Assembly: GCA_028283825.1 (NCBI GenBank)
Contig: JAPWJW010000003.1
Span: forward strand, 186,001-250,000
Source of the DNA: Azospirillaceae bacterium
GTDB taxonomy: Bacteria; Pseudomonadota; Alphaproteobacteria; Azospirillales; Azospirillaceae
Length of the DNA: 64,000 nt
Direction of reading: 5' to 3'
Under the pieces are notes generated by a model. It saw only the letters and a list, made by a program, of their open reading frames with translations. It was not told the DNA's origin and searched no databases. Positions 905-61,116 of the stretch are shown piece after piece. Position 1 is the stretch's first letter. Each line of letters starts with the position of its first letter. Made by a program: the position numbers and the translations under genes.

Positions 905-1003
905 CCCTCAGGCGCCGGGCGTGGCCATCCGGCCACTTGGCTTCCTCGGTTTCCAGTCCGCTGACGCTCCCCTGAAACCTGCGGCGGCCGCGGTCGCGGC
1001 CTA
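905..1003 (-). repeat. Structured dispersed repeat, copy A
   Basis: This is one of six related elements of about 100 bp in the window. Read on the minus strand it starts TAGGCCGCGACCGCGGCC (hairpin 1, GACC loop), continues with a long hairpin whose arms are GGTTTC and GAAACC, then a hairpin GTGGCC-GGAT-GGCCAC, and ends GCCCGGCGCCTGAGGG. It begins 12 bases after the stop of the preceding gene, in antisense orientation to it. The rest of the 286-base gap up to serC shows nothing else I can assign apart from the serC ribosome binding site. Confidence 0.85.
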
Positions 1004-1178
1004 TGGCGTCGCCAAGGCCGGGCGCCTATCCGTAAGGATGTTACGTACGGCATTCCGACATGGCAGCAATGTATCGCGCCCGCATCGACATGATTGACGT
1101 TCTTGCGTGAGGCCCATAAGTTCGGCGGCGGGACACGCCCCCCCAACGGGGCGCAACTATTCTGCAAGGAATAGCATC

Positions 1179-2348
1179 ATGACCGTACCGCCGAAGCCCG
1201 AGAGCCGGCCGTCGAATCCTAATTTTTCTTCTGGTCCCTGCGCCAAGCGTCCCGGATGGACGCTGGATGCCTTGAAGGGCGCCCTGGTGGGCCGCTCGCA
1301 CCGGTCCAAGCCCGGCAAGGCCAAGCTGCAAGAGGTCATTGATCGCAGCCGCGCCCTTCTGAACATCCCGGCCGACTACCGCATCGGCATCGTCCCCGCT
1401 TCCGACACCGGTGCCGTTGAAATGGCCCTGTGGTCGCTGCTGGGCGCCCGCGGTGTCGACATGGTCGCCTGGGAAAGCTTCGGCAAGGATTGGGTGACCG
1501 ACGTCGTGAAGCAGCTGAAGCTGGCCGACGCCCGCACCTTCACCGCCGGCTACGGCAAGCTGCCGGACCTGGCGCAGGTCGATTTCAAGAACGACGTGGT
1601 CTTCACCTGGAACGGCACCACCTCCGGTGTGCGCGTGCCCAACGGTGACTGGATCGCGGATGATCGCGAAGGCCTGACCATCTGCGACGCCACCTCCGCT
1701 GCGTTCGCCATGGACCTGCCGTGGGACAAGCTGGATGTGGTCACCTGGTCCTGGCAGAAGGTGCTGGGCGGTGAGGCCGCGCACGGCATGCTGGTGCTCA
1801 GCCCCCGCGCCGTCGCCCGCCTGGAAAGCTACAAGCCGGCCTGGCCGCTGCCCAAGATTTTCCGCATGACCAAGGACGGCAAGATCGTCGAAGGCATCTT
1901 CAAGGGTGAGACCATCAACACCCCGTCGATGCTGGCGGTCGAGGACGCCCTGGACGGCCTGCGCTGGGCCGAATCCGTGGGCGGCCTGAAGGGCCTGATC
2001 GAACGGTCCGAGGCCAACCTGGCGGCCGTGGCCGACTGGGCGGATGCCGGCACCACCGCGGCCTTCCTGGCCGACGTGCCCGCCACCCGGTCCTGCACCT
2101 CCATCTGCCTGAAGTTCGCCGATCCCAAGTTGGCGACCCAGACGCCGGAAGTGCAGGCGGAAGTGGCCAAGAAGGTCGCTTCCCTGCTGGAAAAGGAAGG
2201 CGTGGCGCTGGACGCCGGCGCCTACCGCGACGCCCCCCCGGGCCTGCGTATCTGGGGCGGCGCCACGATCGAGCGGTCCGACATCCAGGCGCTGCTGCCC
2301 TGGATCGACTGGGCCTACGCCACGGTCGCGGCCGAACTGGTCGCCTGA
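1179..2348 (+). CDS. serC: Phosphoserine aminotransferase
   Basis: SerC is a PLP-dependent, cytosolic transaminase that converts 3-phosphohydroxypyruvate and glutamate to phosphoserine and 2-oxoglutarate, the second step of serine synthesis. The protein is 389 residues, the length of the alphaproteobacterial/archaeal SerC branch. An N-terminal [15 protein letters not shown] motif and the segment [13 protein letters not shown], with Lys194 as the expected PLP Schiff-base lysine, support the call. The ATG at 1179 is chosen because AAGGA lies 8 bases upstream; the frame is open further upstream, but without a good ribosome site or family similarity. serA follows 116 bases downstream in the same direction, so the two probably form a serine-synthesis unit. 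Confidence 0.93.
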
Positions 2349-2464
2349 TCCACGGCTTCGCGTCTTAGTTACGCCTATTCCTGACATACGGCCTGGCGCC
2401 GCCCCCTACCCGGAAACCATCCGGACGGGCGGCGCCGGCCCATCCTTTCAAAGGATCCAGAGCC

Positions 2465-4048
2465 ATGCCCAAGGTTCTCATTTCGGACAGCCTGAGCCCC
2501 CGCGCCGTCGAAATCTTCAAGGAACGCGGCGTCGAGGTCGATGTGATCACCGGCCTGAAGCCGGATGAGCTGAAGGCCATCATCGGCAAGTACGATGGCT
2601 TGGCCATCCGCTCGTCCACCAAGGTCACCAAGGAAGTGCTGGCGGTCGCCACCAACCTGAAGGTGGTCGGCCGCGCCGGCATCGGCGTCGACAACGTGGA
2701 CGTGCCCGCCGCCACCGCCAGCGGCGTGGTGGTCATGAACACCCCCTTCGGCAACTCCATCACCACCGCCGAACACGCCATCGCCATGATGTTCGCGCTG
2801 GCCCGTGAAATCCCGGCCGCCAACACCTCCACCCACGCCGGCAAGTGGGAAAAGAACCGCTTCATGGGTGTGGAGCTGTACGGCAAGGTCCTGGGCGTCA
2901 TCGGCTGCGGCAACATCGGTTCCATCGTCGCCGACCGCGCCTTGGGCCTGAAGATGCGCGTCGTCGCCTTCGATCCCTTCCTCTCGGCCGAACGCGCCCA
3001 GGATCTGGGCGTGGAGAAGGTGGAACTGGACGAGCTGCTGCGCCGCGCCGACTTCATCACTCTGCACACGCCGCTGACCGACGCCACCCGCAACGTGCTG
3101 GACGCCAAGGCGCTGGCCAAGACCAAGCCAGGCGTGCGCATCATCAACTGCGCCCGCGGCGGCCTGATCGTCGAGGCCGACCTGAAGGCGGCCCTGGACA
3201 GCGGCCATGTCGCCGGTGCCGCCCTGGACGTGTTCGCGGAAGAGCCGGCTAAGGAAAGCATCCTGTTCGGTAACGAGAAGGTCATCTGCACCCCGCACCT
3301 GGGCGCCTCCACCACGGAAGCGCAGGAGAACGTGGCCCTGCAGGTGGCCGAGCAGATGTCCGACTTCCTGGTCACCGGCGCCGTGGTCAATGCCCTGAAC
3401 ATGCCGTCGGTCTCGGCCGAAGACGCGCCCAAGCTGAAGCCCTACATGAAGCTGGCCGAACAGCTGGGCGGCTTCGCCGGCCAGATCACCGAGACGGGCC
3501 TGAAGTCCGTGACGGTGGAGTATGAGGGCCAGGTCGCCGACCTGAACACCCGTCCGCTGACCGCCATTGTCCTGATGGGTCTGCTGTCGCCCCTGCTGGC
3601 CTCGGTCAACATGGTCAACGCCCCCGTCATCGCCCGCGAGCGGGACATCAAGGTGGCGGAGACCAAGCGCGACGATGCCGCCGACTACCAGACCCTGATC
3701 CGCGTCGTGGTGCAGACGGAGCGGGCCACCCGCACCGTGGCCGGCACCCTGTTCGGCGGTGAGAAGCCCCGTATCGTCCAGATCGAGGAAGTGCCGATCG
3801 AAGCGGAACTGAGCCAGCACATGCTGTTCATCCGCAACGAGGACAAGCCCGGCTTCATCGGCAAGCTGGGCACCACCCTGGGCGATGCCGGCGTGAACAT
3901 CGCCACCTTCCACCTGGGTCGCACCGAGGCCGGCGCCAACGCCATCGCGCTGGTGTCCGTGGACCTGGAGGTGGGCGAGGGCCTGCTGGAACGCATCCAG
4001 GGCCTGCCCAGCGTGGTCCGCGCCAAGGCGCTGCGCTTCTCCGCCTGA
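2465..4048 (+). CDS. serA: D-3-phosphoglycerate dehydrogenase
   Basis: SerA oxidises 3-phosphoglycerate to 3-phosphohydroxypyruvate with NAD, the committed step of serine synthesis. The 527-residue length is that of the long SerA form: substrate and nucleotide domains, an intervening domain, and a C-terminal ACT domain from about residue 455 ([15 protein letters not shown]) that is expected to bind serine. The NAD motif IGCGNIG lies at 146-152. The catalytic set of the D-isomer dehydrogenases is visible: Arg231 in NCARGG, Glu259/Glu260 in AEEPA and His278 in TPHLG. AAGGA stands 9 bases before the ATG. A strong terminator follows the stop. Confidence 0.96.
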
Positions 4049-4854: not shown

Positions 4855-5940
4855 ATGGCCCAGGGTGTGGGAGGGTGCGTGCTGTTCGCTGAGGGACCCG
4901 AGATGGCCGGCCATCTCGCCGCGCGGGCGATGGACCGCATGGCGGCGGAGCAGGTCGCGCCGCATCCCCACAACTTCACCGTCTGGTACGCCTATGTCAG
5001 CGGGCGTTATCCTGACCTGGTGCGGGCGGTGGACATCATCGCCAGCAACGGCCTGCCCTTCACGGAGGAGCGTTGCGCCGAGCTGTACCACAAGTTCTTC
5101 GCCGTCGATGACGAGTTGGCGGCCATCCAGCAGATCGGCGCCAAGCTGACCGAGGCGCTGGCCGGTGTCGCCACCACCGTGGTCACGGCCGGCGGCGACG
5201 CTGATCGTTTCGGCGCGGCGCTGAACGCCTTCCAGGGCCAGGTCGGCCTGGCCGGTACCCTGGAACAGCTGCGCGGCGTGGTCACCGCCATGACGGAGCA
5301 CGCGCGACGCGTGGCGGCGCGCAACCAGTTCCTGCAAACGCAGTTGAGCAACAGCACGCGCGAGATTGAGACCATGCGCCGTGACCTGGACACGGTGCGG
5401 CGTGAGGCCATGACCGACGCGCTGACGGAACTCGCCAACCGCAAGCAGTTCGACCAGGCCCTGCGTGAGGCGGCGGCCAATGCCATGGAACATGGCCAGC
5501 CGATGTGCCTGGCCATGATCGACATCGATTTCTTCAAGAAATTCAATGACGAGCATGGGCACGTGGTGGGTGACCAGGTGCTGAAGCTGGTGGCCCGCAC
5601 CCTGAAGGACACGGTGCGGGGCCGCGATACCGCCGCCCGCTTCGGGGGTGAGGAATTCGCCATCATCCTGCCCGATACCGGGCTGGAGGAGGCGCTGGTC
5701 TTCGCCGAGCGCACGCGTGTCACCATCGCTAACCGGCGCATCGTCAAGCGCACCACCGGCACGGCCATCGGCAACATCACCCTGTCGGTGGGGGTGGCCC
5801 GGTACGAGCCGGGCGAATCACTGGTCCGCCTTATCCAGCGCGCGGATGAGGCGCTGTACAGGGCCAAGCATGAGGGGCGCAACCAGGTGCGCGCCCATGT
5901 GGGCAGCGCCGGGGCGGCGGCGGAGCCCGCTCTGACTTAG
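4855..5940 (+). CDS. Diguanylate cyclase (GGDEF protein)
   Basis: The protein makes cyclic di-GMP from two GTP. It has 361 residues with an N-terminal helical region (about 1-185) that I cannot name, then a GGDEF domain to about residue 350. The active-site loop reads RFGGEEF with GGEEF at 264-268, an accepted catalytic variant. The I-site RGRD (255-258) lies exactly five residues before it, so product inhibition by c-di-GMP is expected. DIDFFKKFND, the metal/nucleotide segment, is intact. No membrane segment is seen. The ATG at 4855 is the furthest upstream start; a later ATG at 4903 is possible. A structured repeat follows 22 bases after the stop. Confidence 0.88.
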   Translation: MAQGVGGCVLFAEGPEMAGHLAARAMDRMAAEQVAPHPHNFTVWYAYVSGRYPDLVRAVDIIASNGLPFTEERCAELYHKFFAVDDELAAIQQIGAKLTEALAGVATTVVTAGGDADRFGAALNAFQGQVGLAGTLEQLRGVVTAMTEHARRVAARNQFLQTQLSNSTREIETMRRDLDTVRREAMTDALTELANRKQFDQALREAAANAMEHGQPMCLAMIDIDFFKKFNDEHGHVVGDQVLKLVARTLKDTVRGRDTAARFGGEEFAIILPDTGLEEALVFAERTRVTIANRRIVKRTTGTAIGNITLSVGVARYEPGESLVRLIQRADEALYRAKHEGRNQVRAHVGSAGAAAEPALT

Positions 5941-5961: not shown

Positions 5962-6062
5962 TAGGCCCCGACGGGGCCGCCGCAGTTTTCCGGGGAGCCG
6001 TAGGCGGACTGGAAAGCGAGGACAAGCCAAGCCCGCGGATGCGGGCGCCCGGCGCCTGAGGG
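5962..6062 (+). repeat. Structured dispersed repeat, copy B
   Basis: This is the same element as copy A, on the plus strand. Hairpin 1 is GGCCCC-GAC-GGGGCC. Hairpin 2 has arms GTTTTCC and GGAAAGC around an inner GCC-GTA-GGC. Hairpin 3 is CCCGC-GGAT-GCGGG. It ends GCGCCTGAGGG. It sits between two convergent genes, 22 bases after one stop and 20 bases before the end of the other gene. Confidence 0.85.
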
Positions 6063-6082
6063 AAAACGACGGCTAACCCCCA

Positions 6083-6433
6083 TTACCACTTACGTTCCGT
6101 CTTCATGTTGCCGCCATTGATGGCGTCCAGGAAAGCGCTGCCGCTGGATTTGCGGGGGGCGCGCAAGCCGCCCTGGGCGCGGGTGGTGGCCACCACCTTG
6201 ATGGCGGCGTCGGTGGCGTCGGTCTGGATTTGGCGGCGCACGTCCGGCTCCAGCGATTCGAAGGCCTCACGCGCGAAAACCAGGGCGTTTTCCGAGCGGG
6301 TTTCCAGAACCTGGCGCAAGGCGTTGGCCGCCATCAGGCATTCCAGGCGTTCCGGTCCGGACAGGTCGTCCAGCACGTCCGCCAGGATGCCGATCGCTTG
6401 CAGCGTCTTCGTATCGTTCAAGCGCAGGTTCAT
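6083..6433 (-). CDS. Small hypothetical protein
   Basis: This 116-residue protein starts MNLRLNDTKTLQAIGILADV. It is predicted soluble and helical, with an acidic centre and a basic C-terminal end (MKTERKW). No known motif is recognised. The ATG at 6433 is preferred over an upstream in-frame ATG at 6448 because GGGGAG stands about 7 bases before it on the minus strand. It is transcribed towards the diguanylate cyclase gene, with repeat copy B between them, and away from the helicase gene. Codon use resembles that of its neighbours, which supports it being real. Confidence 0.6.
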   Translation of the reverse strand: MNLRLNDTKTLQAIGILADVLDDLSGPERLECLMAANALRQVLETRSENALVFAREAFESLEPDVRRQIQTDATDAAIKVVATTRAQGGLRAPRKSSGSAFLDAINGGNMKTERKW

Positions 6434-18569: not shown

Positions 18570-19431
18570 ATTGCCATAATGTCCGCGAAGACGCCGCATG
18601 GATTTGTTGTCTATTGAGGATGGCAGGGGTGAGTACTCCGCCATGACGGTGTCATATGGCTTGGGAGTTGGGTTCTATGCGCAATTTTGTGGGTGGGGTC
18701 GGCCGGGCCAGGGCCGTTTCCTGGCGGGCCGCGCTGTTGTGCGGCGTGATGGTTGTGTTGCCGGCGGCCGGTTGGGCGGCGGGGCCGGGGGAGGGGAACC
18801 CCGATGGGGGCGCCGCCACGGTGGCGTCCGACCCGGCGCTGGCGGAGGTCACGGTGGAGGGGCGTCGCCTTGACCCGCAACGTCCCGCCGTGGGCAAGAC
18901 CGGCACCAAGCTGGAGGATCTGCCCAATAGCGTGCAGGTGGTGACGCGCGACTTGGTGGACGAGCAGGGTGGCGTCTCGGTCAAGGACGCCATCCGCAAC
19001 GCCAGCGGCATCGGCCAGGGCGGCGCCGACGGCTTCGGCTTCGGCGACCGCTTCCTGGTACGGGGGCTGGACGCGCGCCTCTATAACGACGGCTTTTCCG
19101 ATGGCGACCAGCGCAACGGCATCCCGCATTCGCTGAACGGGGTGGCGCAGGTGGAGATCATGAAGGGGCCCGGCTCCGCCTTGTTCGGCAGCGGCCCGCC
19201 CGGCGGCACCATCAACATCGTGCACTATCTGCCCTCCGGCACCTTTGATTTCGGTGGCGGTGTGCAGGGCGCCTCCTTCGGCAGCGTCACCGCCAACGCC
19301 TTTGTCACCGGTCCCACGGAACTGCCCGGCCTGGCTTATCGTGTGGACACCCTGGTCCAGCATGGTGACGGCTTCCGTGGCTTGGGCAGTGATGATGAGG
19401 AAGTCCGGCCGGAGATCAGTTGGTCGGGTGG

Positions 19432-20936
19432 GGGCTGTTGAAGAAGCCCGATGGAGCCGCGATCTGAGGATCAAGCAGGCCAAGGCGGTTGGTTTTGAGG
19501 TCGCATTGTCGGGCTGGCGGTCGGAGACAGGCCGGCCCGGATGCTTGAGAGGGCCAGAATAAGGGCTGCCGCCAGCCGCTTGAGGTTGACGGCGGCAGCG
19601 GCGAGATAGGCTTGTATCTGCATGTTGGCGAGCCCGCGTCGGACGGCGCGTCTCATGCCGTGCCAGGATTTGGCCTCGCCATGATAGCCTTCGACGCGGA
19701 TGCGGTGGCTGCGGTAGAGGGCTCGTTCGCGGTCGGCCCATCGGGCGTATTTTCGCCGTGCCCGGAGTAGGGCGTCGTGATTTTTGTGCAGTAGGATGGC
19801 GCGGCGTTTCATGTTTTCGCTGAAACACCCCGTCCGCCGCCGGCAGGCTTGGCAATCGGAAGGCCGGGCCCTGTAGTGCTGGAAACTATCGCTGTCCGGC
19901 TTGCCGTGCGGGCGAAGCAACTTGCCGGCGGGGCAGCGGACCACTCGGTTCCTGGCGTCCAGTTTGAAGCGCCGAACCGGGATGACGCCCTTCTTCGGCG
20001 GCCGTTCGGGCTTGGCTGGAATGACCCCTTCGATACCCAGCGCCTCCAGAACCGCGAAGATGTAGGTGGTGGCGTAACTGGCGTCCATGGTGGATGCCTG
20101 AATGGCGACACCGGTTGTCGCTGTGATGGCATCAAGTTGGGCCTCGACTGCCTTGGTATCGTGGACGGCACCCGTGGTGATCGCCACGTCCAGGACGACA
20201 CCCCGTTCGGCATCAACGGCGGTATGGTGCTTGTAGGCGGGCTCGCTGCGACGGCCGGTCTTGTTGGTGGCCAGGGTCGCATCGGGATCGCTGGTGCAGA
20301 CATACTCCGTCTTCGTTTTCTTTGTGGCGGGAGGGCCTGCGCCTGGACCGTCCGCTTCCTCGGGATGATTAGCGGTCTCCACGGCATCAACGTGACGGCG
20401 AGCGATGGCCTCCCAACTCACATTCGCGCGGATCAACGAACTGTCGATGTGAACAACCTCACCCTTGGCGATCTTGGCTGCGATACACGCCTGAACCGTA
20501 CGGGTGAAAATCTTGCGGAACCGCTCGCCGCCCCAGCGCTGACGAATGCGGGTCAGGCTGGAATGGTCGGGAACCGCCTCGTGCAGGCCATAGCCGATGA
20601 ACCATCGGATCGCCAGATTGACCTGCGCCTCACGCACCAGGCGCCGGTCATGCACGATCCCCAGCAGCATTCCCGCCAACATCAGCCGGACCGCAACCTC
20701 CGGCGCAATGCCAGGGCGTCCCGCTGTCGCGCTGTAGAGGTCGCCAACCTCTCCTTCAAGCCAGCCAAGGTCGAGGACTTTGTCCACCCGGACCAGGACG
20801 TGCTCTTCAGGCAGCAAATCCCTCAGTGACCCTGCAACAAAAAGCTCAGGCTGACGGCGATCCTTCTGGCCCAACATGGCGATGCCTCCCTCAACACCAC
20901 CAGAGAATCAGCCATTCACGACTTTTTCAACAGCCC
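19432..20936 (-). mobile_element. Insertion sequence copy 1 (IS1182-like), 1505 bp
   Basis: The element is bounded by imperfect terminal inverted repeats: GGGCTGTTGAAGAAGCCC at the left edge and, read inward from the right edge, GGGCTGTTGAAAAAGTC. It is flanked by a 7-bp target duplication CGGGTGG (19425-19431 and 20937-20943). It holds one transposase gene on the minus strand and splits a TonB receptor gene. It matches copy 2 in length and nearly in sequence; I saw two single-base differences in the coding part, one silent. Confidence 0.92.
19471..20877 (-). CDS. IS1182-like transposase, copy 1
   Basis: This 468-residue DDE transposase cuts and inserts the surrounding element. The N-terminal domain (about 1-130: FVAGSLRDLLPEEHVLVRV, PDHSSLTRIRQR) is typical of the IS1182/IS5-like group. 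The catalytic core contains HIDSSLIRANVSW with the first Asp and HHTAVDAERGVVLDVAITTG with the second; the Glu is likely in RVEGYHGEAKSWHG. A Cys cluster (CQACRRRTGC, with a Cys in VVRCPAGK) suggests a zinc-binding insert. It differs from copy 2 by Ala for Val in the DVAITTG segment. The ATG is at 20877; the frame is intact, so it is probably active. Confidence 0.9.
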   Translation of the reverse strand: MLGQKDRRQPELFVAGSLRDLLPEEHVLVRVDKVLDLGWLEGEVGDLYSATAGRPGIAPEVAVRLMLAGMLLGIVHDRRLVREAQVNLAIRWFIGYGLHEAVPDHSSLTRIRQRWGGERFRKIFTRTVQACIAAKIAKGEVVHIDSSLIRANVSWEAIARRHVDAVETANHPEEADGPGAGPPATKKTKTEYVCTSDPDATLATNKTGRRSEPAYKHHTAVDAERGVVLDVAITTGAVHDTKAVEAQLDAITATTGVAIQASTMDASYATTYIFAVLEALGIEGVIPAKPERPPKKGVIPVRRFKLDARNRVVRCPAGKLLRPHGKPDSDSFQHYRARPSDCQACRRRTGCFSENMKRRAILLHKNHDALLRARRKYARWADRERALYRSHRIRVEGYHGEAKSWHGMRRAVRRGLANMQIQAYLAAAAVNLKRLAAALILALSSIRAGLSPTASPTMRPQNQPPWPA

Positions 20937-28620: not shown

Positions 28621-28652
28621 ATGTGGGCTTTGAGAATCATACCAGCGGCACG

Positions 28653-30157
28653 GTGCTGTTGAAAAAGTCGTGAATGGCTGATTCTCTGGTGGTGTTGAGG
28701 GAGGCATCGCCATGTTGGGCCAGAAGGATCGCCGTCAGCCTGAGCTTTTTGTTGCAGGGTCACTGAGGGATTTGCTGCCTGAAGAGCACGTCCTGGTCCG
28801 GGTGGACAAAGTCCTCGACCTTGGCTGGCTTGAAGGAGAGGTTGGCGACCTCTACAGCGCGACAGCGGGACGCCCTGGCATTGCGCCGGAGGTTGCGGTC
28901 CGGCTGATGTTGGCGGGAATGCTGCTGGGGATCGTGCATGACCGGCGCCTGGTGCGTGAGGCGCAGGTCAATCTGGCGATCCGATGGTTCATCGGCTATG
29001 GCCTGCACGAGGCGGTTCCCGACCATTCCAGCCTGACCCGCATTCGTCAGCGCTGGGGCGGCGAGCGGTTTCGCAAGATTTTCACCCGTACGGTTCAGGC
29101 GTGTATCGCAGCCAAGATCGCCAAGGGTGAGGTTGTTCACATCGACAGTTCGTTGATCCGCGCGAATGTGAGTTGGGAGGCCATCGCTCGCCGTCACGTT
29201 GATGCCGTGGAGACCGCTAATCATCCCGAGGAAGCGGACGGTCCAGGCGCAGGCCCTCCCGCCACAAAGAAAACGAAGACGGAGTATGTCTGCACCAGCG
29301 ATCCCGATGCGACCCTGGCCACCAACAAGACCGGCCGTCGCAGCGAGCCCGCCTACAAGCACCATACCGCCGTTGATGCCGAACGGGGTGTCGTCCTGGA
29401 CGTGGTGATCACCACGGGTGCCGTCCACGATACCAAGGCAGTCGAGGCCCAACTTGATGCCATCACAGCGACAACCGGTGTCGCCATTCAGGCATCCACC
29501 ATGGACGCCAGTTACGCCACCACCTACATCTTCGCGGTTCTGGAGGCGCTGGGTATCGAAGGGGTCATTCCAGCCAAGCCCGAACGGCCGCCGAAGAAGG
29601 GCGTCATCCCGGTTCGGCGCTTCAAACTGGACGCCAGGAACCGAGTGGTCCGCTGCCCCGCCGGCAAGTTGCTTCGCCCGCACGGCAAGCCGGACAGCGA
29701 TAGTTTCCAGCACTACAGGGCCCGGCCTTCCGATTGCCAAGCCTGCCGGCGGCGGACGGGGTGTTTCAGCGAAAACATGAAACGCCGCGCCATCCTACTG
29801 CACAAAAATCACGACGCCCTACTCCGGGCACGGCGAAAATACGCCCGATGGGCCGACCGCGAACGAGCCCTCTACCGCAGCCACCGCATCCGCGTCGAAG
29901 GCTATCATGGCGAGGCCAAATCCTGGCACGGCATGAGACGCGCCGTCCGACGCGGGCTCGCCAACATGCAGATACAAGCCTATCTCGCCGCTGCCGCCGT
30001 CAACCTCAAGCGGCTGGCGGCAGCCCTTATTCTGGCCCTCTCAAGCATCCGGGCCGGCCTGTCTCCGACCGCCAGCCCGACAATGCGACCTCAAAACCAA
30101 CCGCCTTGGCCTGCTTGATCCTCAGATCGCGGCTCCATCGGGCTTCTTCAACAGCCC
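28653..30157 (+). mobile_element. Insertion sequence copy 2 (IS1182-like), 1505 bp
   Basis: This has the same length as copy 1 and is inverted relative to it. The ends are GTGCTGTTGAAAAAGTC (left) and, read inward, GGGCTGTTGAAGAAGCCC (right). A 7-bp target duplication CGGCACG flanks it (28646-28652 and 30158-30164). It sits in intergenic DNA between a hairpin and repeat copy C. A different duplication from copy 1 shows that the two inserted independently. Confidence 0.92.
28712..30118 (+). CDS. IS1182-like transposase, copy 2
   Basis: This 468-residue DDE transposase is intact and differs from copy 1 at a single residue that I could see (Val in place of Ala within DVVITTG) plus one silent base. 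It has the same N-terminal IS1182/IS5-like domain, catalytic Asp in HIDSSL and HTAVDAERG, the likely Glu in YHGEAK, and the Cys-rich insert. The near identity implies recent spread of the element in this genome. ATG 28712 starts about 60 bases inside the left end. Confidence 0.9.
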   Translation: MLGQKDRRQPELFVAGSLRDLLPEEHVLVRVDKVLDLGWLEGEVGDLYSATAGRPGIAPEVAVRLMLAGMLLGIVHDRRLVREAQVNLAIRWFIGYGLHEAVPDHSSLTRIRQRWGGERFRKIFTRTVQACIAAKIAKGEVVHIDSSLIRANVSWEAIARRHVDAVETANHPEEADGPGAGPPATKKTKTEYVCTSDPDATLATNKTGRRSEPAYKHHTAVDAERGVVLDVVITTGAVHDTKAVEAQLDAITATTGVAIQASTMDASYATTYIFAVLEALGIEGVIPAKPERPPKKGVIPVRRFKLDARNRVVRCPAGKLLRPHGKPDSDSFQHYRARPSDCQACRRRTGCFSENMKRRAILLHKNHDALLRARRKYARWADRERALYRSHRIRVEGYHGEAKSWHGMRRAVRRGLANMQIQAYLAAAAVNLKRLAAALILALSSIRAGLSPTASPTMRPQNQPPWPA

Positions 30158-30181
30158 CGGCACGAGTGACTCGTGCCGCTG

Positions 30182-30279
30182 TAGGACGCGACCGCGTCCG
30201 CCGGAAGTTTCTGGGGAACGAAGTGGACCAGAAACTGAGGAAGCCAAGCGACCGGATGGTCGCGCCCGGCGCTTGAGGG
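30182..30279 (+). repeat. Structured dispersed repeat, copy C
   Basis: Hairpin 1 is GGACGC-GACC-GCGTCC. Hairpin 2 has perfect 9-bp arms AGTTTCTGG and CCAGAAACT enclosing AC-GAA-GT. Hairpin 3 is GCGACC-GGAT-GGTCGC. It ends GCGCTTGAGGG. It starts 17 bases after the target duplication of IS copy 2 and lies downstream of rpsU, which is transcribed towards it. Confidence 0.85.
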
Positions 30280-30365
30280 GCGGCATTTGAGCGGTCACGT
30301 TCAAATGCCGCGCGTATCAGCGCGCGCTTGTCCGGCGGGGCTGCCCGCCAAATTGCAGGCATGAC

Positions 30366-32364: not shown

Positions 32365-32465
32365 TAGGCTGCGACCGCAGCCGCCGCAGGTTTCCGGGGA
32401 GCGTTAGCGGACTGGAAACCGAGGATCAGCCAAGGCCACGGATGTGGCCGCCCGGCATCTGAGGG
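32365..32465 (+). repeat. Structured dispersed repeat, copy D
   Basis: Hairpin 1 is GGCTGC-GACC-GCAGCC. Hairpin 2 has arms GGTTTCC and GGAAACC with an inner GC-GTTA-GC. Hairpin 3 is GGCCAC-GGAT-GTGGCC. It ends GCATCTGAGGG, 30 bases after the COQ9 gene stop and just before a bidirectional terminator. Confidence 0.85.
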
Positions 32466-32469
32466 CAGG

Positions 32470-32507
32470 AAAAAAGAAGGGCCCGGACATCACCGTCCGG
32501 GCCCTTT
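32470..32507. terminator. Bidirectional terminator, now separated from the MFS gene by an intron
   Basis: A 10-bp perfect stem GGGCCCGGAC / GTCCGGGCCC with loop ATCACC. The minus-strand side is followed by TTCTTTTTT, the better T-tract, and the plus side by TTTCC. The orientation of the T-tract suggests that it served the minus-strand MFS gene, which now ends 1.9 kb away because of the group II intron. Confidence 0.8.
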
Positions 32508-36682: not shown

Positions 36683-36699
36683 TTCCCCATATTATCCGC

Positions 36700-39387: not shown

Positions 39388-39399
39388 GGGGGTGATCCC

Positions 39400-40278: not shown

Positions 40279-40571
40279 TGGAAGTCCTGAAGTACGATTA
40301 TCCGCAGGCCACGGCAGCGCTGACCAAGCGGGTGCATGTGGGTGTGGTCGGGTCGGGGGACCTGGAGGTCCTGATGGAGCCGTCGGCGGACGGCCAGGCC
40401 CACGTGGTGGTGAACACCAGCGTCAACGGCTACGGCCAAATCTGGAAAAGCGTCATCGACCGCTTCTTCACCCGGTTCGACCGCGCCGCCGCCATTGAGA
40501 TCAACGACTTCGGCGCCACGCCCGGCATGGTGGCGTTGCGCCTGGAGCAAGCCGTGGAGGTCAGCAAATGA
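40275..40571 (+). CDS. mdcC: Malonate decarboxylase acyl carrier protein (delta subunit)
   Basis: This small carrier protein of 98 residues holds the phosphoribosyl-dephospho-CoA group. The attachment serine is expected at Ser27 in GVVGSGDLEVLME (Ser26 if the second Met starts; Ser25 in characterised enzymes). FFTRFDRAAAIEINDFGATP is the conserved C-terminal block. It overlaps mdcB and mdcD by 4 bases on each side. Confidence 0.93.
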   Translation: MMEVLKYDYPQATAALTKRVHVGVVGSGDLEVLMEPSADGQAHVVVNTSVNGYGQIWKSVIDRFFTRFDRAAAIEINDFGATPGMVALRLEQAVEVSK

Positions 40572-41452: not shown

Positions 41453-42276
41453 GCGTCACCGAAAGCCGTGGGCGCACCTGGCTGGCCGCCCTGACGGGCG
41501 CTGAAGCCAAGGCCGCCTCGGGCAAGAATTCCGTCCTCTACGCCGATGCCACGCTGGGCGCCGACACCGCGCGTTTCATCGCCGTGGTGCCCGATGCCGA
41601 CAGCCGCTTCCCCCGTGCCCGCACGGGTGAGGTGGGGCTGGAGCAGGGCTGGGCATTGGCCAAGCTGGTGCGCGACACCATCGCCGCCGACACGGATGGC
41701 GCCCGCCGTCCCATCGTGGCCGTGGTGGACGTGACCAGCCAGGCCTATGGCCGGCGGGAGGAGATGCTGGGCATCCATCTCGCCTGTGCCGCTGCGGCCG
41801 ATGCCTATGCCGAGGCGCGCCTGGCCGGGCACCCGGTGGTGGCCCTGCTGGTGGGCAAGGCCATGTCGGGCGCCTTCCTGGCCCACGGCTACCAGGCCAA
41901 CCGCCTGGTGGCGCTGGACGATACCGGCGTGCTGGTCCATGCCATGGGCAAGCAGGCCGCCGCCCGCATCACCCGCCGCCCGGTGAGTGAGCTGGACGCC
42001 CTGGGCGACAAGATCCCGCCCATGTCCTACGACATCAAGAACTACGCCAAGCTGGGGTTGCTGCACGCCCTGATCGACGGCGTCAACGCGGGGGCGCCCG
42101 CGGCCGACGATGTGGCCAAGGTGACCAAGGTGCTGGTGGAGGCCGTGGCCGACATCCGCAGCAGCGGCCGCCGGGATCTCGCCAACCGCCTCACCTCGCC
42201 GGCGGCCAGGCAGTTGCGCGCCGCTTCGATCGAGGTGCGCCGCCGCCTGGCCCAGCAGTGGGACCAGACGGTCTGA
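41449..42276 (+). CDS. mdcE: Malonate decarboxylase gamma subunit
   Basis: This is the second half of the heterodimeric decarboxylase. 275 residues; conserved blocks include SFLYADATLG-type NSVLYADATLGADTARF, VVDVTSQAYGRREEMLGIH, GKAMSGAFLAHGYQANRL, HAMGKQAAARITRR and SYDIKNYAKLG. A GC-rich hairpin follows the stop at 42292. Confidence 0.93.
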   Translation: MSVTESRGRTWLAALTGAEAKAASGKNSVLYADATLGADTARFIAVVPDADSRFPRARTGEVGLEQGWALAKLVRDTIAADTDGARRPIVAVVDVTSQAYGRREEMLGIHLACAAAADAYAEARLAGHPVVALLVGKAMSGAFLAHGYQANRLVALDDTGVLVHAMGKQAAARITRRPVSELDALGDKIPPMSYDIKNYAKLGLLHALIDGVNAGAPAADDVAKVTKVLVEAVADIRSSGRRDLANRLTSPAARQLRAASIEVRRRLAQQWDQTV

Positions 42277-42291
42277 GGTCCCTTGTGAAAC

Positions 42292-42325
42292 ACCGCCCGT
42301 GCCGCGTGACATCGGCGCGGGCGGT
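42292..42325 (+). other. Strong hairpin between mdcE and mdcF
   Basis: Arms ACCGCCCGTGCCG and CGGCGCGGGCGGT pair over 13 bp (one T-G pair) around an 8-base loop, 15 bases after the mdcE stop. The following CTTCAC is not a T-tract. It may slow transcription or protect the upstream mRNA, so lowering mdcFGH relative to mdcABCDE. Confidence 0.5.
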
Positions 42326-42480
42326 CTTCACAGACAAGTGAACTTGACATGATGGTCCGGGATGGCGATCCGCGTTCCCGGAACGGGTGAACTCACCCAA
42401 TCGGAATAAGAAAAGCGAACAATAACAATCAGGTCTTCGCCGGTTGGCCGGCGAAGCCACGCAGTAGGGATGATCTGACC

Positions 42481-43425
42481 ATGTACATGATGATCGCGTC
42501 CGCCTTGGTACCGGTATTCTTTGTCATGCTGCTGGGCTATTTCGCCGGCAAGCGCGGCATCGTGGACAACGGCAATATCAAGTCGTTGAACATGTTCCTG
42601 ATGATGTTCACCTTGCCGGCCGCCCTGTTCACGGCCATCGCCCGCACGCACCGCGACGTCATCATCCAGAACGCCCCGCTGATGGCCGTGCTGGCCATCT
42701 CGCTGCTGGTCGTGTTCGGCGTCATGGCCGTCCTGCAGTACAAGGCGTTCAAGCTCAGCCGGGCGGATGGCGCGGTGCAGATGCTGACCGTGTCCTTCCC
42801 CAACTTCGCCTCCATCGGCCTGCCGCTGCTGTCGGGCATCTATGGCGCCCAAGCCGCCCTGCCGGTGGCCATCGCCATTGCCACCGGCTCCGTCACCATC
42901 TCGCCCCTGACCCTGACCCTGCTGGAACTGTCCAAGCAGCCGGAGGGGGCGGGCGGCGGCTTCGGCCAGTTCCTGGGCGCGCTGCGCAAGTCGGTCAGCA
43001 AACCCATCTTCATCGCCCCCATGCTGGGTGTGATCCTGGCGCTGGCGGGGGTGGAGATGCCGCCGCTGGTGGACAAGTCCCTGAGCCTGATCGGTGCGGC
43101 CACTGCCGGCGCCGGCCTGTTCCTGACCGGCCTGATCCTGTCGGCCCAGCCCATCCGCATCAACGGCAACGTCGTGGTCGGCGTGCTGCTGAAGAACGTG
43201 CTTCAGCCCCTGCTGGCCGCCCTGGTGGTGCGCCTGCTGGACGTGCCGCAGCCGCTGGCTGGTGAGGTCGTGCTGCTGATCGCCATCCCGGCCGGCTTCT
43301 TCGGCCTGGTGTTCGGTGCCGGTTATGGCGCCCGGCCGGCGGTGGCCGGTTCCACCCTGGTGGCGTCCTCGCTGGCCAGTATAGTGACCCTGGCGGTGGC
43401 CATCGCCCTGGTGGCGCCGCACTGA
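42481..43425 (+). CDS. mdcF: Malonate transporter, auxin efflux carrier family
   Basis: This inner-membrane carrier of 314 residues has about ten helices and belongs to the AEC family, where MdcF of malonate loci falls. The start MYMMIASALVPVFFVMLLGY and the central SFPNFASIGLPLLSGIYG (the unwound-helix Asn/Pro motif of the family) are clear. It lies 204 bases after mdcE and before mdcG, the position mdcF holds in known malonate operons. Import of malonate is inferred from this context. A repeat (copy E) starts 10 bases after the stop. Confidence 0.88.
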   Translation: MYMMIASALVPVFFVMLLGYFAGKRGIVDNGNIKSLNMFLMMFTLPAALFTAIARTHRDVIIQNAPLMAVLAISLLVVFGVMAVLQYKAFKLSRADGAVQMLTVSFPNFASIGLPLLSGIYGAQAALPVAIAIATGSVTISPLTLTLLELSKQPEGAGGGFGQFLGALRKSVSKPIFIAPMLGVILALAGVEMPPLVDKSLSLIGAATAGAGLFLTGLILSAQPIRINGNVVVGVLLKNVLQPLLAALVVRLLDVPQPLAGEVVLLIAIPAGFFGLVFGAGYGARPAVAGSTLVASSLASIVTLAVAIALVAPH

Positions 43426-43434
43426 TGAAGAGTG

Positions 43435-43532
43435 CCCTCAAGCGCCGGGCGCCGGCATCCGCCGGCTTGGCTTCCTCGGTTTCCAGTACACTTCGTTTCC
43501 CAGAAACCCGCGGCGGCCGCAGTCGCGGCCTA
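43435..43532 (-). repeat. Structured dispersed repeat, copy E (inside the mdc operon)
   Basis: On the minus strand hairpin 1 is GGCCGC-GACT-GCGGCC, hairpin 2 has arms GGTTTC and GAAACC with an inner AC-GAA-GT, hairpin 3 is GCCGGC-GGAT-GCCGGC, and it ends GCGCTTGAGGG. It fills the space between the mdcF stop and the mdcG start, ending 11 bases before the mdcG ATG, so it would be transcribed in antisense form within the mdc mRNA. Confidence 0.87.
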
Positions 43533-43543
43533 TCTTGGGTTTG

Positions 43544-44194
43544 ATGCCAATGTCCTTCTTCCTGCCGCACGATCTGCTGAAGCTTGAGACCCTCAATGAT
43601 CTTGAGGGTGACACGCCCGCCCCGGATTGGGTGGCGGACAGCTTGGCCACCGCTCCCTGGGTGGTGGTCCGGCGGGCGATGGCGCCCACCGGCCAAGTTG
43701 CGGTGGGCGTGCGGGGACGGGAGCGTCATCAGCGCTGGGGTGCCCGCCTTCCCATCAAGGCCGTGGCGGAATGCTGGCGGCCGGAGGCGGTGGTGGAGCG
43801 TTTGGCCATGCTGCCCCCGGCAAGGGCGGCGGTAGTACCGGCCCTGGCCGCCATCCCGGACTTGATGGCGGCGCTGGCGGCGCGGGGCCTGGTGGGTGGC
43901 CCCACCGGCAGCACGGGTTTCGAGCTTGCCAGCGGTAGGCCCACGGCCACGGCCGCCAGCGACCTGGACGCCATGGTGCGGGCCCCAAAATTGCTGGAAC
44001 GGGCGCTGGCGGTCGATCTGGTTCAGGCGCTGGCCGTCTTGGCCGTCCGCTGCGACGTCGTGCTGGAAACCCCGGCCGGGGCCATCGCCCTGGCGGAATA
44101 TGCGCGCGCGCCCGGCCCCGTCGCCGCCCGTGGACCTCACGGCCCCCGGCTGGTGGCGGATCCCTGGGCCAAAGACGAGGAGTTAGGCGCATGA
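43544..44194 (+). CDS. mdcG: Phosphoribosyl-dephospho-CoA transferase (malonate decarboxylase holo-ACP synthase)
   Basis: MdcG attaches the prosthetic group made by MdcB to MdcC. 216 residues from ATG 43544 (MPMSFFLPHDLLKLE). Family blocks: PHDLLKL, APWVVVRRA, GVRGRERHQRWGA, GPTGSTGFELASGRPTATAASDLDAMVR (Asp-x-Asp in SDLD, nucleotidyltransferase-like) and CDVVLETPAGAIALAEYA. Starts at 43535 (TTG) or 43550 are possible; none has a clear ribosome site because repeat E lies directly upstream. The stop overlaps the mdcH ATG. Confidence 0.9.
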   Translation: MPMSFFLPHDLLKLETLNDLEGDTPAPDWVADSLATAPWVVVRRAMAPTGQVAVGVRGRERHQRWGARLPIKAVAECWRPEAVVERLAMLPPARAAVVPALAAIPDLMAALAARGLVGGPTGSTGFELASGRPTATAASDLDAMVRAPKLLERALAVDLVQALAVLAVRCDVVLETPAGAIALAEYARAPGPVAARGPHGPRLVADPWAKDEELGA

Positions 44195-45120
44195 CCACTT
44201 TTCTCTGCCCCGGGCAGGGGGCGCAAACCCCCGGCTTCATGCATGAACTGCCCGACACGCCGGAGGTGGCGGCGACCTTGGCGGAGGCCAGCCGCGCGCT
44301 GGGCCACGACGTGTTGGACCTCGATACGGCGGAGCACCTGGAATCCACCGTCGCCGTGCAACTGACGGCCCTGGTGGCTGGTGTCGCCATGAGCCGGGCG
44401 CTGATCACCCGCGACGTGCGGCCTGATTCTGTCGCGGGATTGTCGGTCGGGTCCTTCACCGCCGCCGTTATCGCCGGCGCCTTGGACTTCACCGACGCCG
44501 TGCCGCTGGTACGCCTGCGCGCCTCCCTGATGGAACAGGCTTATCCCACCGGCTACGGCATGGCGGCCTTCGGCGGCTTCAACCAGCGCCGGCTGGCGCA
44601 GTTGGCCGAGGCACAGGCGACGGCGGAGGAGCCGCTGTACCTGGCCAACTTCAACGCCCCGACGGAGATCGTGGTGACCGGCGCCGTGGCGGCGCTGGAA
44701 CGCCTGGTGACATCGGCGCAAGAGGCCGGCGCGCGCCGGGCCCAGCGCCTGGCCGTCAGCGTGCCGTCGCACTGCCCCTTGCTGGCGGATGTTTCCACCA
44801 AGCTGGCGGCGGCGTTGGAGAGCATTCCCATTCAGGCGCCGCGCCTGACCTATGTTGGCAACCGCCGTGCCCGCATCCTGCGCGATGCGGCGGCGGTGGT
44901 GGAGGAACTGGCCACCAATGTCTGCAATCCCGTGCTATGGCACGACAGCACGACCCTGCTGTTCGAATTGGGTGAGCGTTTCTTCATCGAGATGCCGCCC
45001 GGCACCACCCTGACCGGTCTGGCCGGCGACGCCTTCCCCGACGCTGACGCCCGCTGTTCCAGCCGCACGCCCTTGGACACCTTGGTCTACCTGGCCGCCC
45101 GCGCCGCCCGTGAGGGGTGA
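44191..45120 (+). CDS. mdcH: Malonate decarboxylase epsilon subunit (malonyl-CoA:ACP transacylase)
   Basis: MdcH primes the carrier protein by transferring malonyl from malonyl-CoA to MdcC. 309 residues with the acyltransferase fold: PGQGAQTPGFM near the N-terminus, nucleophile Ser85 in GLSVGSF, and His in SVPSHCPLL as its partner. It overlaps mdcG by 4 bases and is the last gene of mdcABCDEFGH. A convergent gene ends 9 bases downstream; no terminator is seen between them. Confidence 0.92.
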   Translation: MTTFLCPGQGAQTPGFMHELPDTPEVAATLAEASRALGHDVLDLDTAEHLESTVAVQLTALVAGVAMSRALITRDVRPDSVAGLSVGSFTAAVIAGALDFTDAVPLVRLRASLMEQAYPTGYGMAAFGGFNQRRLAQLAEAQATAEEPLYLANFNAPTEIVVTGAVAALERLVTSAQEAGARRAQRLAVSVPSHCPLLADVSTKLAAALESIPIQAPRLTYVGNRRARILRDAAAVVEELATNVCNPVLWHDSTTLLFELGERFFIEMPPGTTLTGLAGDAFPDADARCSSRTPLDTLVYLAARAAREG

Positions 45121-45129
45121 GCGGCGGCG

Positions 45130-45846
45130 TCAGTCGAAATCGAACAGGTTGGTCTTCTTCAGGGCGTTGCCCAAGGCGGCGATGTTCTCCGGTGTCGGCT
45201 CTATGTAGCCGGCATTGGCGATCGACAGCTTGTCGTCCGTTTCTCGCAGGGCATTGAAGAAGACGGCCCGATACCGCAGGCTCGTCAACAGATAGGCCCC
45301 TTGCTGCACGGTCAGCGGTTTGCCGCCGTTGGCGACCTGGGCCGCGTCCACCATGTCGTTCCAGCCCGCGATGTCCGCTGTCGCCTCGTCCACCATCTTC
45401 ATCTGGATGAAGGTCTTCAGATCGTTGGCGGTCGGGCCGTTGGGCATGGGGCTGGGCGTCCTGATGTGTGCCGCCAGGTGTCCCAGCACGAAGGTCATGG
45501 TGTTGGGCGGAATAGAATCGGTCTGGCGCGCGTCGAAGGGCTGGGCCTGGGCCACGTTCACCAGGAAGACCGGCATGAAGATGATCTTGCCGTCGCGGGC
45601 CATGGCGGCGAAGGGGTTGGGCTTGCCGGTGGCGTCGATCTCGAACCCCTTCAGGGTGCCGGCTTCCGCCAGGGCGTTCAATTCGGCGGTCAGGGCGGGT
45701 GATCCCGTGATGGCGTCGGCCACCTGCCTGTACTGGGTGGCATCGGCGTGCGCCGCAAAGTCATCAAGTTCCTCCTGCAACGGCGCGCTCAAGGAAACGG
45801 CCAGCGCGGCCGTTGCGACAGTCAGGCCCATTCCCATCTTCCCCAT
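45130..45846 (-). CDS. Hypothetical protein with signal-like N-terminus
   Basis: This 238-residue protein (or 233 from the Met at 45831, which has GGGGAAG before it) has an N-terminal hydrophobic stretch MGLTVATAALAVSLSAP, probably a signal peptide. The centre contains TFVLGHLAAHI, which looks like an HxxxH zinc motif but has Leu where the catalytic Glu should be, and later VDEATADIAGWNDMV. This recalls a metallopeptidase fold without the catalytic residue, but the resemblance is weak. It is convergent with mdcH. Function unknown. Confidence 0.65.
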   Translation of the reverse strand: MGKMGMGLTVATAALAVSLSAPLQEELDDFAAHADATQYRQVADAITGSPALTAELNALAEAGTLKGFEIDATGKPNPFAAMARDGKIIFMPVFLVNVAQAQPFDARQTDSIPPNTMTFVLGHLAAHIRTPSPMPNGPTANDLKTFIQMKMVDEATADIAGWNDMVDAAQVANGGKPLTVQQGAYLLTSLRYRAVFFNALRETDDKLSIANAGYIEPTPENIAALGNALKKTNLFDFD

Positions 45847-60741: not shown

Positions 60742-60819
60742 AGGATGCTGGTCCCCATACTGGTCATTCTGGTCGTCGGTCGCCGCCCCCGCGCCGTCGC
60801 CGACAACCCACCATACGGG

Positions 60820-60843
60820 GGTATTGATACCGATTCCAATACC
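60820..60843. promoter_or_regulatory. Candidate operator upstream of the M28 cluster
   Basis: Inverted arms GGTATTG and CAATACC are separated by 10 bases, 79 bases upstream of the first M28 gene. A related GATATTGGATACC occurs at 60871-60883. The clustered, symmetric TATTG/ATACC elements suggest a regulator binding site near the promoter. The regulator is unknown. Confidence 0.45.
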
Positions 60844-61019
60844 GGAAGGACCGGATTGTGACAAAATCGGGATATTGGATACCGTCAAAAAGATCGAAAG
60901 CGTCAAATATCCCCGAAACACGGGGACTTACGCGCGTGACGGTTGGGGCGACTCAAAGGACATGCGTGAAGGCGGCCCGTGCGCCAAACAAACGGGGCGC
61001 GAGTCGAAACGCGCGCCGC

Positions 61020-61116
61020 TAGGCCGCGACCGCGGCCGCCGGACCTTTGTGGGGAACGTAGTGGACCGGAAAGGGAGGATAGCCAAAGGCCCGGACGGGC
61101 CTGCCGGCGCTTGAGG
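61020..61116 (+). repeat. Structured dispersed repeat, copy F
   Basis: Hairpin 1 is GGCCGC-GACC-GCGGCC. Hairpin 2 has arms CCTTT and AAAGG with an inner AC-GTA-GT. Hairpin 3 is AGGCCC-GGAC-GGGCCT. It ends GGCGCTTGAGG. It lies 6 bases beyond the rimO stop, antisense to rimO. The rest of the 60742-61122 gap holds the inverted repeat listed above and nothing else clear. Confidence 0.85.

What the first reader, a model, noticed from the sequence alone, without database searches (positions are those of the whole stretch)
905..61116. Six-copy structured repeat whose hairpins covary
Copies at 905-1003(-), 5962-6062(+), 30182-30279(+), 32365-32465(+), 43435-43532(-) and 61020-61116(+). Seen directly: hairpin 3 is GTGGCC/GGCCAC, CCCGC/GCGGG, GCGACC/GGTCGC, GGCCAC/GTGGCC, GCCGGC/GCCGGC and AGGCCC/GGGCCT in the six copies. 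The stems differ in sequence yet remain fully paired, around a nearly invariant GGAT loop (GGAC in F). Hairpin 1 covaries too (GGACGC/GCGTCC, GGCTGC/GCAGCC, GGCCCC/GGGGCC) around GAC(C/T), and hairpin 2 changes from GGTTTC/GAAACC to AGTTTC/GAAACT and CCTTT/AAAGG, with a covarying inner GC/GC or AC/GT. A CGCCG...CGGCG pair may close the outside. Compensatory change in every stem implies selection on the fold. I recognise no named family. Possible roles: small RNA, mRNA 3'-end element, nucleoid or integration site, or a mobile REP-like element.
Basis: seen in the sequence. Interest (0 to 1): 0.85.

Follow-up and report, generated by a model that had tools for sequence, protein, structure and literature searches.

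The report
Folded hopping element at gene ends
A short mobile DNA element, estimated at several hundred copies in this bacterium and also found in many other Alphaproteobacteria, carries a 100-letter stretch that keeps a precise RNA-like fold even where its letters change, and here it sits mostly just behind the ends of genes.

Summary
In detail: six real copies, covarying stems. On a sequence-only alignment of 40 copies 95.2% of pair cells are paired, 81.9±0.7% when partners are dealt anew. The genome is a Nitrospirillum with about 500 copies by extrapolation. The 100-nt module is the core of a mobile unit, mostly 156-174 bp: 5' hairpin, module, 3' hairpin, ends TACC...(G/C)GTA. Of 33 complete units 19 have identical 3-bp flanks, 18 of them TNA. 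Empty orthologous sites exist. Window copy C is a complete unit split by an IS. Module matches occur in 32 of 385 class genomes, 18 families, some weak. New here is a predicted H-type pseudoknot joining the C-run before GGCG to the G-run of TGAGGG. In Nitrospirillum, copies lie between convergent genes (46 of 65), rarely between divergent ones (1 of 65); orthologous copies stay 98% paired. Best reading: a MITE whose folded core persists as a REP-like 3'-UTR element; function is inferred. No RAYT in seven genomes, no Rfam family. CIR/RIME repeats are closest; their sequences could not be compared.

The parts
904..1003 (-). copy A, module; antisense to both flanking genes, 10 nt behind the stop codon of the left gene; filled in G003, empty in G002, G005, G006
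5962..6063 (+). copy B, module between convergent genes (GGDEF gene 4855-5940 and a called ORF on - at 6083-6433); G001, G002, G003 and G006 carry a copy in the opposite orientation
28637..28639 (.). left target duplication TCA of unit C
28640..28650 (+). left end of unit C (TACCAGCGGCA), cut off from the rest by an IS
28651..30158 (+). 1508-bp IS (DUF772 + DDE_Tnp_1_6 transposase) inserted in the 5' hairpin of unit C, with GGCA on both sides; a second copy (99.8%) lies at 19431-20938
30159..30181 (+). rest of the 5' hairpin of unit C (contains GACTC, a GANTC site)
30182..30280 (+). copy C, module
30281..30316 (+). 3' hairpin and right end of unit C (...GCCGCGCGTA)
30317..30319 (.). right target duplication TCA of unit C
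32365..32466 (+). copy D, module, between the stop codon of a COQ9-family gene and a terminator hairpin that all six relatives also have; the copy itself is absent from all six
32476..32507 (+). intrinsic terminator of the host gene (shared with relatives), behind copy D
43434..43532 (-). copy E, module, antisense between two + strand genes, 8 nt behind the left stop codon
61020..61118 (+). copy F, module of the GCC/GAGGA type, between convergent genes, 4 nt from the opposing stop codon

Best explanation
It is a miniature transposable element of Alphaproteobacteria. Shown from sequence: the complete unit is 5' hairpin + about 100-nt module + 3' hairpin, with ends TACC...(G/C)GTA; it sits in TNA targets that are duplicated, and is amplified in Nitrospirillum. 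The module has three covarying hairpins (loops GACC/T, a variable inner loop, GGAT), a closing GCC/GGC helix, and a predicted H-type pseudoknot in which the C-run just before GGC pairs with the G-run of TGAGGG. Inferred: a transposase supplied in trans (not identified) moves it. Copies that land behind stop codons survive and are transcribed as part of 3' UTRs or between operon genes. There the compact fold protects or separates the upstream message, in the manner of REP elements, by blocking 3'-to-5' exonucleases. That use keeps the module folded after the terminal hairpins have decayed.
For: Mobility: empty orthologous sites; 33 complete units, 19 with identical 3-bp flanks (TAA 7, TGA 6, TCA 3, TTA 2, TAG 1) against 0-2 of 33 in shifted controls; exact TACC/GGTA ends with identical 3-bp flanks also in 3 of 27 other-family copies looked at (L174, L160, L152, no control run); window unit C with TCA/TCA. 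Fold. Strand sense: G.U 159 against A.C 11 cells over 124 copies, though 134 of the 159 lie in two adjacent pairs of HP2. Pseudoknot: linker GCCC or GCC against G or not-G after GAGG: 73/3/3/25 in Nitrospirillum and 37/2/0/10 elsewhere; 16 changes on the same branch against about 2 expected. Place: convergent 46 of 65 copies against 11% of intergenic length, divergent 1 of 65 against 31%; tandem sense:antisense 70:16 in the pattern-selected loci. Retention: 31 orthologous copies are 98% paired in HP1 and HP3 (183/186, 153/155), although only 10 of them have a strong 5' hairpin and none the 3' hairpin, against 18 and 8 of the 35 other copies (my tally of the rows).
Against: No transcript data. 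The orientation bias is 13:5 (p=0.10) in the syntenic stretches and absent in other families (sense 12, antisense 17). Antisense copies exist (A and E in the window). No transposase with these ends was found: 20 DDE_Tnp_1 loci tested, none fits. About half of the GCC-type copies have A after GAGG (12 of 27), which leaves that pair unformed; at this pair 7 of 38 cells on A2 are unpaired. HP3 differences between orthologues lack intermediates, which also fits exchange between copies. Two of 12 orthologous sites carry copies in opposite orientations, so some 'orthologues' may be separate insertions. The pairing count picks the best register for each copy and so is somewhat generous.
Confidence: 0.5

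Rival explanations
1. The fold serves the element, not the host: the module is the RNA or single-strand DNA that a mobilising enzyme must recognise, so it is kept at each round of transposition, and copies are merely tolerated at gene ends.
For: The core is conserved over many families while the stems drift; units with the same ends occur in several families; orientation is unbiased outside Nitrospirillum; avoidance of promoters and genes alone would give the convergent excess.
Against: Old orthologous copies mostly without a strong 5' hairpin keep HP1 and HP3 98% paired; the sense bias in tandem genes, 70:16, needs some effect in place; ends and duplication look like a cut-and-paste transposon that needs only its ends.
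Confidence: 0.25
2. Two-sided changes come from mutation, not selection: hairpin-templated copying or gene conversion between hundreds of copies keeps arms complementary.
For: HP3 differences between same-orientation orthologues are 26 two-sided, 5 one-sided (all broken), 0 one-sided paired; HP3 has 4 G.U and 1 A.C in 505 cells.
Against: HP1 shows one-sided but paired changes (10 of 28 differences); the pseudoknot partners are not arms of one hairpin and still change together; HP2 keeps a G.U pair (GU 32 of 40).
Confidence: 0.12
3. DNA-level element of the CIR type: hairpins present GANTC sites to the CcrM methylase or to nucleoid proteins.
For: GANTC lies in the first 36 nt (5' hairpin) of 26 of 33 complete Nitrospirillum units, against 3.1% of random 36-nt stretches of the window.
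Against: The module, which is the conserved part, has GANTC in only 4 of 123 copies; a strong 5' hairpin is present in only 28 of 66 copies; a pseudoknot makes no sense in duplex DNA.
Confidence: 0.08
4. Translational switch: the terminal GAGGG is a Shine-Dalgarno sequence sequestered by the pseudoknot.
For: Some copies have ATG 8-11 nt behind GAGG (L056, L158, L159).
Against: Without a gene caller the excess of starts at 5-12 nt is weak: 20 of 143 copies, 2.5 per nt against 1.5-2.0 at 13-52 nt; most copies in the syntenic stretches lie between convergent genes.
Confidence: 0.05

Closest known systems
CIR elements (Caulobacter CcrM-associated intergenic repeats; Chen and Shapiro 2003) and RIME (Osteras 1995)
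   Same: For CIR: alphaproteobacterial, about 110 bp, intergenic, two arms of inverted repeats joined by a linker, GANTC at or in a loop of one arm, TA at the termini (as described in passages of PMC2229807). RIME: I saw only the citation.
   Different: PMC2229807 lists CIR without terminal inverted repeat and with unknown target duplication; here there are terminal inverted repeats, a 3-bp duplication, five hairpins, and a predicted pseudoknot. Chen and Shapiro 2003 is not held and Osteras 1995 was not looked up, so sequence identity with CIR or RIME is neither shown nor excluded.
REP/BIME/REPIN elements with RAYT (TnpA-REP)
   Same: Hundreds of extragenic folded copies at gene 3' ends, possible mRNA stabilisation (recalled, and stated for E. 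coli REPs in passages of PMC5082802).
   Different: No Y1_Tnp/RAYT match in seven Nitrospirillum genomes; 3-bp target duplication; 100-nt multi-hairpin core in place of a short palindrome (its usual size is recalled).
Br-REP1 of Bradyrhizobium (PMC5082802)
   Same: Repetitive element with three stem-loops in overlapping 3' UTRs of convergent genes.
   Different: The printed consensus of its central stem-loop (CCGGAATCTCGAGATTCCGG) shares no motif that I can see with this module; passages read only, its alignment was not seen.
MITEs such as QMITE2 of Coxiella (PMC10969869 passages)
   Same: Small, terminal inverted repeats, target duplication, mostly in 3' untranslated regions, transcripts predicted to fold.
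   Different: QMITE2 is given 7-9 bp duplications and 23-29 bp inverted repeats; here a folded core conserved over many families.

Membership tests
MITE (miniature inverted-repeat transposable element) | short non-autonomous unit | tested here: met
   33 complete units, 99-174 bp, 30 of them 156-174 bp
MITE (miniature inverted-repeat transposable element) | terminal inverted repeats | tested here: met
   TACCRGCGGC at the left, GCC(G/A)nn(G/C)GTA at the right; TACC/GGTA in some other-family copies
MITE (miniature inverted-repeat transposable element) | target-site duplication | tested here: met
   19 of 33 identical 3-bp flanks, shifted controls 0-2 of 33
MITE (miniature inverted-repeat transposable element) | empty orthologous sites | tested here: met
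   two clean comparisons show the whole unit missing (copies 64 and 42)
MITE (miniature inverted-repeat transposable element) | autonomous parent IS with the same ends | tested here: inconclusive
   none among 20 DDE_Tnp_1 loci of G000 and G005; other transposase families not tested
REP/REPIN with RAYT | RAYT (Y1_Tnp) gene in the genome | tested here: not met
   0 of 7 Nitrospirillum genomes at E<=0.001; the control search rings in 5 of 14 named genomes
CIR/RIME | sequence homology with CIR1-4 or RIME | not tested
CIR/RIME | conserved GANTC in an arm | tested here: inconclusive
   26 of 33 complete Nitrospirillum units, but of four slices of other-family loci scanned only L166 has one (the slices do not cover each unit fully)
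Rfam families (release 15) | match to any covariance model | tested here: not met
   none at gathering score on a copy in the window; for copy B at E<=5 only two matches far below gathering; in five other-family loci one match over modules, MIR9486, E 0.16, 26.2 bits against 100

The most novel reading that the evidence does not exclude
A transposable element whose only product is a pseudoknotted RNA needed for its own movement: a bacterial, class-wide, RNA-only mobile element, comparable in logic to a SINE or to an IS110 bridge RNA, in which the ends define the DNA substrate and the folded core is the trans- or cis-acting RNA.
Probability: 0.12. Interest if true: 0.88.

Novelty: new variant of a known kind. 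Interest (0 to 1): 0.6.

Why it matters
It turns an unexplained intergenic repeat into a defined mobile unit with ends, target duplication and a testable RNA fold, with module matches in 18 families of Alphaproteobacteria (some weak). It bears on a question left open for CIR repeats, how they move (PMC2229807). If the fold is kept in place for the host, several hundred gene ends in one genome share a transposon-derived structure. If it is kept for movement, it is a transposon that needs a structured RNA.

Tried and rejected
RAYT/REPIN membership: tested and not met; the three Y1_Tnp loci found in two other genera carry no copy within the fetched flanks (R1 at E<=1; R3 at E<=0.01). Autonomous partner: the 3' hairpin pattern has 79 matches in three genomes, 30 of which came as loci; 29 of 30 are attached to a module, and the 30th (L285) has an IS110/IS1111-type gene (named by me from the translation, not by a family search) between the place of a module and the 3' hairpin. 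20 DDE_Tnp_1 loci had no ends of the kind TNA-TACC[AG]...[CT]GGTA-TNA at 900-2300 bp. Shine-Dalgarno switch: looked attractive with my gene caller, but that caller rewards SD-like motifs; the caller-free count shows only a weak excess. Link of copy D with the nearby group II intron: the intron follows the host terminator, not the element. CsrA-type GGA loops were considered and not tested.

Own errors. I noticed it, counted the correct structure on the sequence-only alignment and built R3. Searches used R1 or R2, so their hits rest on sequence and HP1. R3 recovers 16 of the 20 rows, all at higher scores (+1.2 to +13.4 bits, which had the stricter limit E<=0.01); the effective sequence numbers of the two models differ, so this is only a rough control. 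(2) crashed and was repaired; one search printed nothing because of a file-name clash and was redone. (3) One search's alignment of HP3 is poor; one search replaces it for HP3. (4) The gene caller is home-made, trained on Nitrospirillum, and was used for other families too.

Dropped rows; hits under 45 bits, of other families, incomplete at either end or duplicate were left out (124 kept of 171 hits); hits under 45 bits, other families, locus L001 and duplicates left out; 143 kept, 4 of them at contig edges; 66 copies, one without a left gene; 18 of 119 copies not parsed for HP3; 54 copies, 8 at edges, 4 without a parsed linker; 153 unique parsed of 177; 143 of 148 with GAGG.
Full report
WHAT IS THERE. 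All six copies are at the stated coordinates and fold as three hairpins. The window is part of a 7.16-Mb genome in five contigs. Five of its six same-genus relatives have contigs of exactly the length of named Nitrospirillum contigs (for example G006:C1 and NZ_CP022110.1, 2945703 bases), so the genus is Nitrospirillum, Azospirillaceae. Each of the six relatives has 40-45 BLAST matches to copy B (40 candidates scored per genome); the other six genera of the family sampled have 0, 0, 0, 2, 5 and 8. In 450 kb of contig C3 there are 32 CM hits, two of them weak at E about 0.01, which extrapolates to about 510 in the genome; this is an estimate, not a count.

THE FOLD. On the sequence-only alignment A2 of 40 copies with the structure in correct register, 95.2% of pair cells are standard pairs against 81.9±0.7% when partners are re-dealt. 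154 cells have two-sided changes against 49.7, and the covariation score is 0.342 against 0.121±0.008, with none of 500 shuffles reaching any of the five observed values; slid structures give 35-46%. Related sequences can exceed such shuffles without structure, as the tool warns; the slid controls do not have that weakness. Every helix except the short CC/GG one has at least one pair with two-sided changes. HP3 has 26 different 5' arms among 101 parsed copies and is 98.4% paired against 60.5% re-dealt. Of the 159, 110 and 24 lie in two neighbouring pairs of HP2; without them the ratio is 25 to 11. Strand-specific DNA folding would leave the same trace, so this alone does not prove RNA.

A PSEUDOKNOT. 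The letters before GGC are GCCC or GCC, and the letter after GAGG follows them: GCCC with G, GCC with C or A. Counts (GCCC-G, GCCC-other, GCC-G, GCC-other) are 73, 3, 3, 25 in Nitrospirillum (Fisher p=1.3e-17) and 37, 2, 0, 10 in other genera (p=8e-9). On a tree of 153 unique copies built without these letters there are 23 and 27 changes, 16 of them on the same branch, against about 2 expected (trees of 100-nt repeats are weak). Mixed types occur in Nitrospirillum, in other Azospirillaceae, in f13 and in the Erythrobacteraceae/Sphingomonadaceae set. The simplest reading is CCC:GGG or GCC:GGC pairing across the GCC/GGC helix, an H-type pseudoknot. Of its three pairs on A2, two have two-sided changes and 94.1% of cells are paired. 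Against it: where A follows GAGG (12 of 27 GCC copies) the outer pair is not formed, and at that pair 7 of 38 cells on A2 are unpaired.

IT IS A MOBILE UNIT. Orthologous sites of relatives lack individual copies. Two clean comparisons (copies 64 and 42) and a less clean third (copy 46) show that what was inserted is larger than the module: a 5' hairpin beginning TACCRGCGGC and a 3' hairpin ending (G/C)GTA come and go with it. Of 33 complete units found in the fetched loci, 19 have identical 3-bp flanks (TAA 7, TGA 6, TCA 3, TTA 2, TAG 1, so 18 fit TNA); shifted controls give 0 to 2. One of the 33 begins at the edge of its locus and could not be judged. In the window, copy C is such a unit: TCA-TACCAGCGGCA, then a 1508-bp IS with GGCA on both sides, then the rest of the hairpin, module, 3' hairpin...GTA-TCA. 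In other families some copies show the same plan with quite different stems; of 27 copies looked at, 3 have exact TACC and GGTA ends with identical 3-bp flanks: L174 TCA, L160 TAA, L152 TTA (no chance control). The 3' hairpin pattern (up to 2 mismatches) occurs 45, 27 and 7 times in G000, G005 and G006, reversed control 0; thus only a minority of the copies is complete. The moving enzyme is unknown: no Y1_Tnp in seven genomes, no fitting ends at 20 DDE_Tnp_1 loci.

DISTRIBUTION. With the correct model R3, 32 of 385 sampled genomes of the class have a match at E<=1e-3, in 18 families; by the E-values about 0.4 genomes would match by chance, and f2 and f34 rest on single matches weaker than 1e-4. 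With R2 (faulty helices), 14 of 289 in the class and 8 of 249 in the phylum sample at E<=1e-4, all eight in this class (the share of other classes in that sample is not shown). Only 10 to 17 candidates are scored per genome, so these are lower bounds. Named hosts outside the genus from the pattern scan include Aurantiacibacter, Pontixanthobacter and Erythrobacter.

WHERE COPIES SIT. With a home-made gene caller, 46 of 65 copies in 1.66 Mb of Nitrospirillum sequence lie between convergent genes (11% of intergenic length) and 1 of 65 between divergent genes (31%); 13 are tandem sense, 5 antisense. In the pattern-selected loci: 70 tandem sense, 16 tandem antisense, 51 convergent, 2 divergent, 4 at edges, of 143. 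Outside the genus: 12 sense, 17 antisense, 13 convergent, 4 divergent, 8 at edges, of 54. So the end-of-gene placement is strong in Nitrospirillum; the orientation bias is significant only in its pattern-selected loci. Copy D sits between a stop codon and a terminator shared with all six relatives, so it would be transcribed.

IS THE FOLD KEPT IN PLACE? Twelve sites carry copies in two or more species (31 copies). Their HP1 and HP3 are 98.4% and 98.7% paired, as good as the 35 other copies (97.1%, 98.1%, which takes the best register for each copy). Yet a strong 5' hairpin remains in only 10 of these 31 and the 3' hairpin in none, against 18 and 8 of the 35 others (my tally from the rows; 28 and 8 of 66 in all). 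Differences between same-orientation orthologues: HP3 26 two-sided and 5 broken; HP1 12 two-sided, 10 one-sided but paired, 6 broken. This favours retention in place, but HP3's lack of intermediates, and two sites with opposite orientations, leave room for exchange between copies or repeated insertion.

COMPARISON WITH THE KNOWN. The nearest described elements are CIR and RIME of Alphaproteobacteria. I saw passages about CIR in PMC2229807 and PMC10969869 and citations of both in PMC1273637; the CIR paper is not held and the RIME paper was not looked up. In PMC2229807 CIR is said to be about 110 bp, two arms and a linker, GANTC at a terminal loop, no terminal inverted repeat, duplication unknown. 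Here GANTC lies in the 5' hairpin of 26 of 33 complete units. Whether these are one family is open. Br-REP1 (passages of PMC5082802) is similar in place and shape, not in the printed sequence. Searches whose listings (capped at 10-20 rows where many papers matched) showed no description of this element; the library holds open-licence papers only. RepRanger (passages of PMC12306157) does not mention Nitrospirillum or Azospirillum. Rfam has no family.

VERDICT. Observation confirmed. A MITE of Alphaproteobacteria with a folded, predicted pseudoknotted core conserved over many families; new variant of a known kind. That it acts as a REP-like 3'-UTR RNA is inference.

Noticed in passing
window, about 32513-34340 (borders not determined): A group II intron (Rfam D1D4-3 and D1D4-1 hits at 32594-32871, RVT_1 + maturase ORF 32898-34265) lies behind the intrinsic terminator that follows copy D; the six relatives have terminator and downstream gene without it. 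This fits the terminator preference of class C introns (recalled).
   Followed up: partly
window 28651-30158 and 19431-20938: Two 99.8% identical copies of a 1508-bp IS (DUF772 + DDE_Tnp_1_6), one of them splitting the 5' hairpin of unit C with GGCA on both sides.
   Followed up: yes
L285 125-1309 (G005:C31): An IS110/IS1111-type transposase gene (named from its translation) directly before a 3' hairpin that lacks its module, as if the element were its attachment site.
   Followed up: partly
L071, L027, L019, L093, L120, L011, L158, L163: Tandem arrays of two to four modules, roughly 55-120 bp apart, several with differing HP3 stems.
   Followed up: no
L041 111-349, L101 4335-4582, L130 1169-1413: Erythrobacteraceae/Sphingomonadaceae loci where a short-HP2 and a long-HP2 copy stand head to head 73-79 bp apart, most with A-rich tails (such as CTAAACAAACAAA) outside.
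   Followed up: no
L130 3626-3788: Sub-threshold match to Rfam CC2171 (Caulobacter sRNA; 47.3 bits, E 3e-7, gathering 75) about 80 nt from a module copy.
   Followed up: no
window 1126-1179: serC leader RNA (RF00517) upstream of the gene called at 1272; copy A lies between it and the upstream gene, on the other strand.
   Followed up: no
window, about 36690-45130: Block including copy E for which the (capped) list shows no match in the syntenic stretches of the relatives, beside a tRNA gene at 36607-36679: possibly an island.
   Followed up: no
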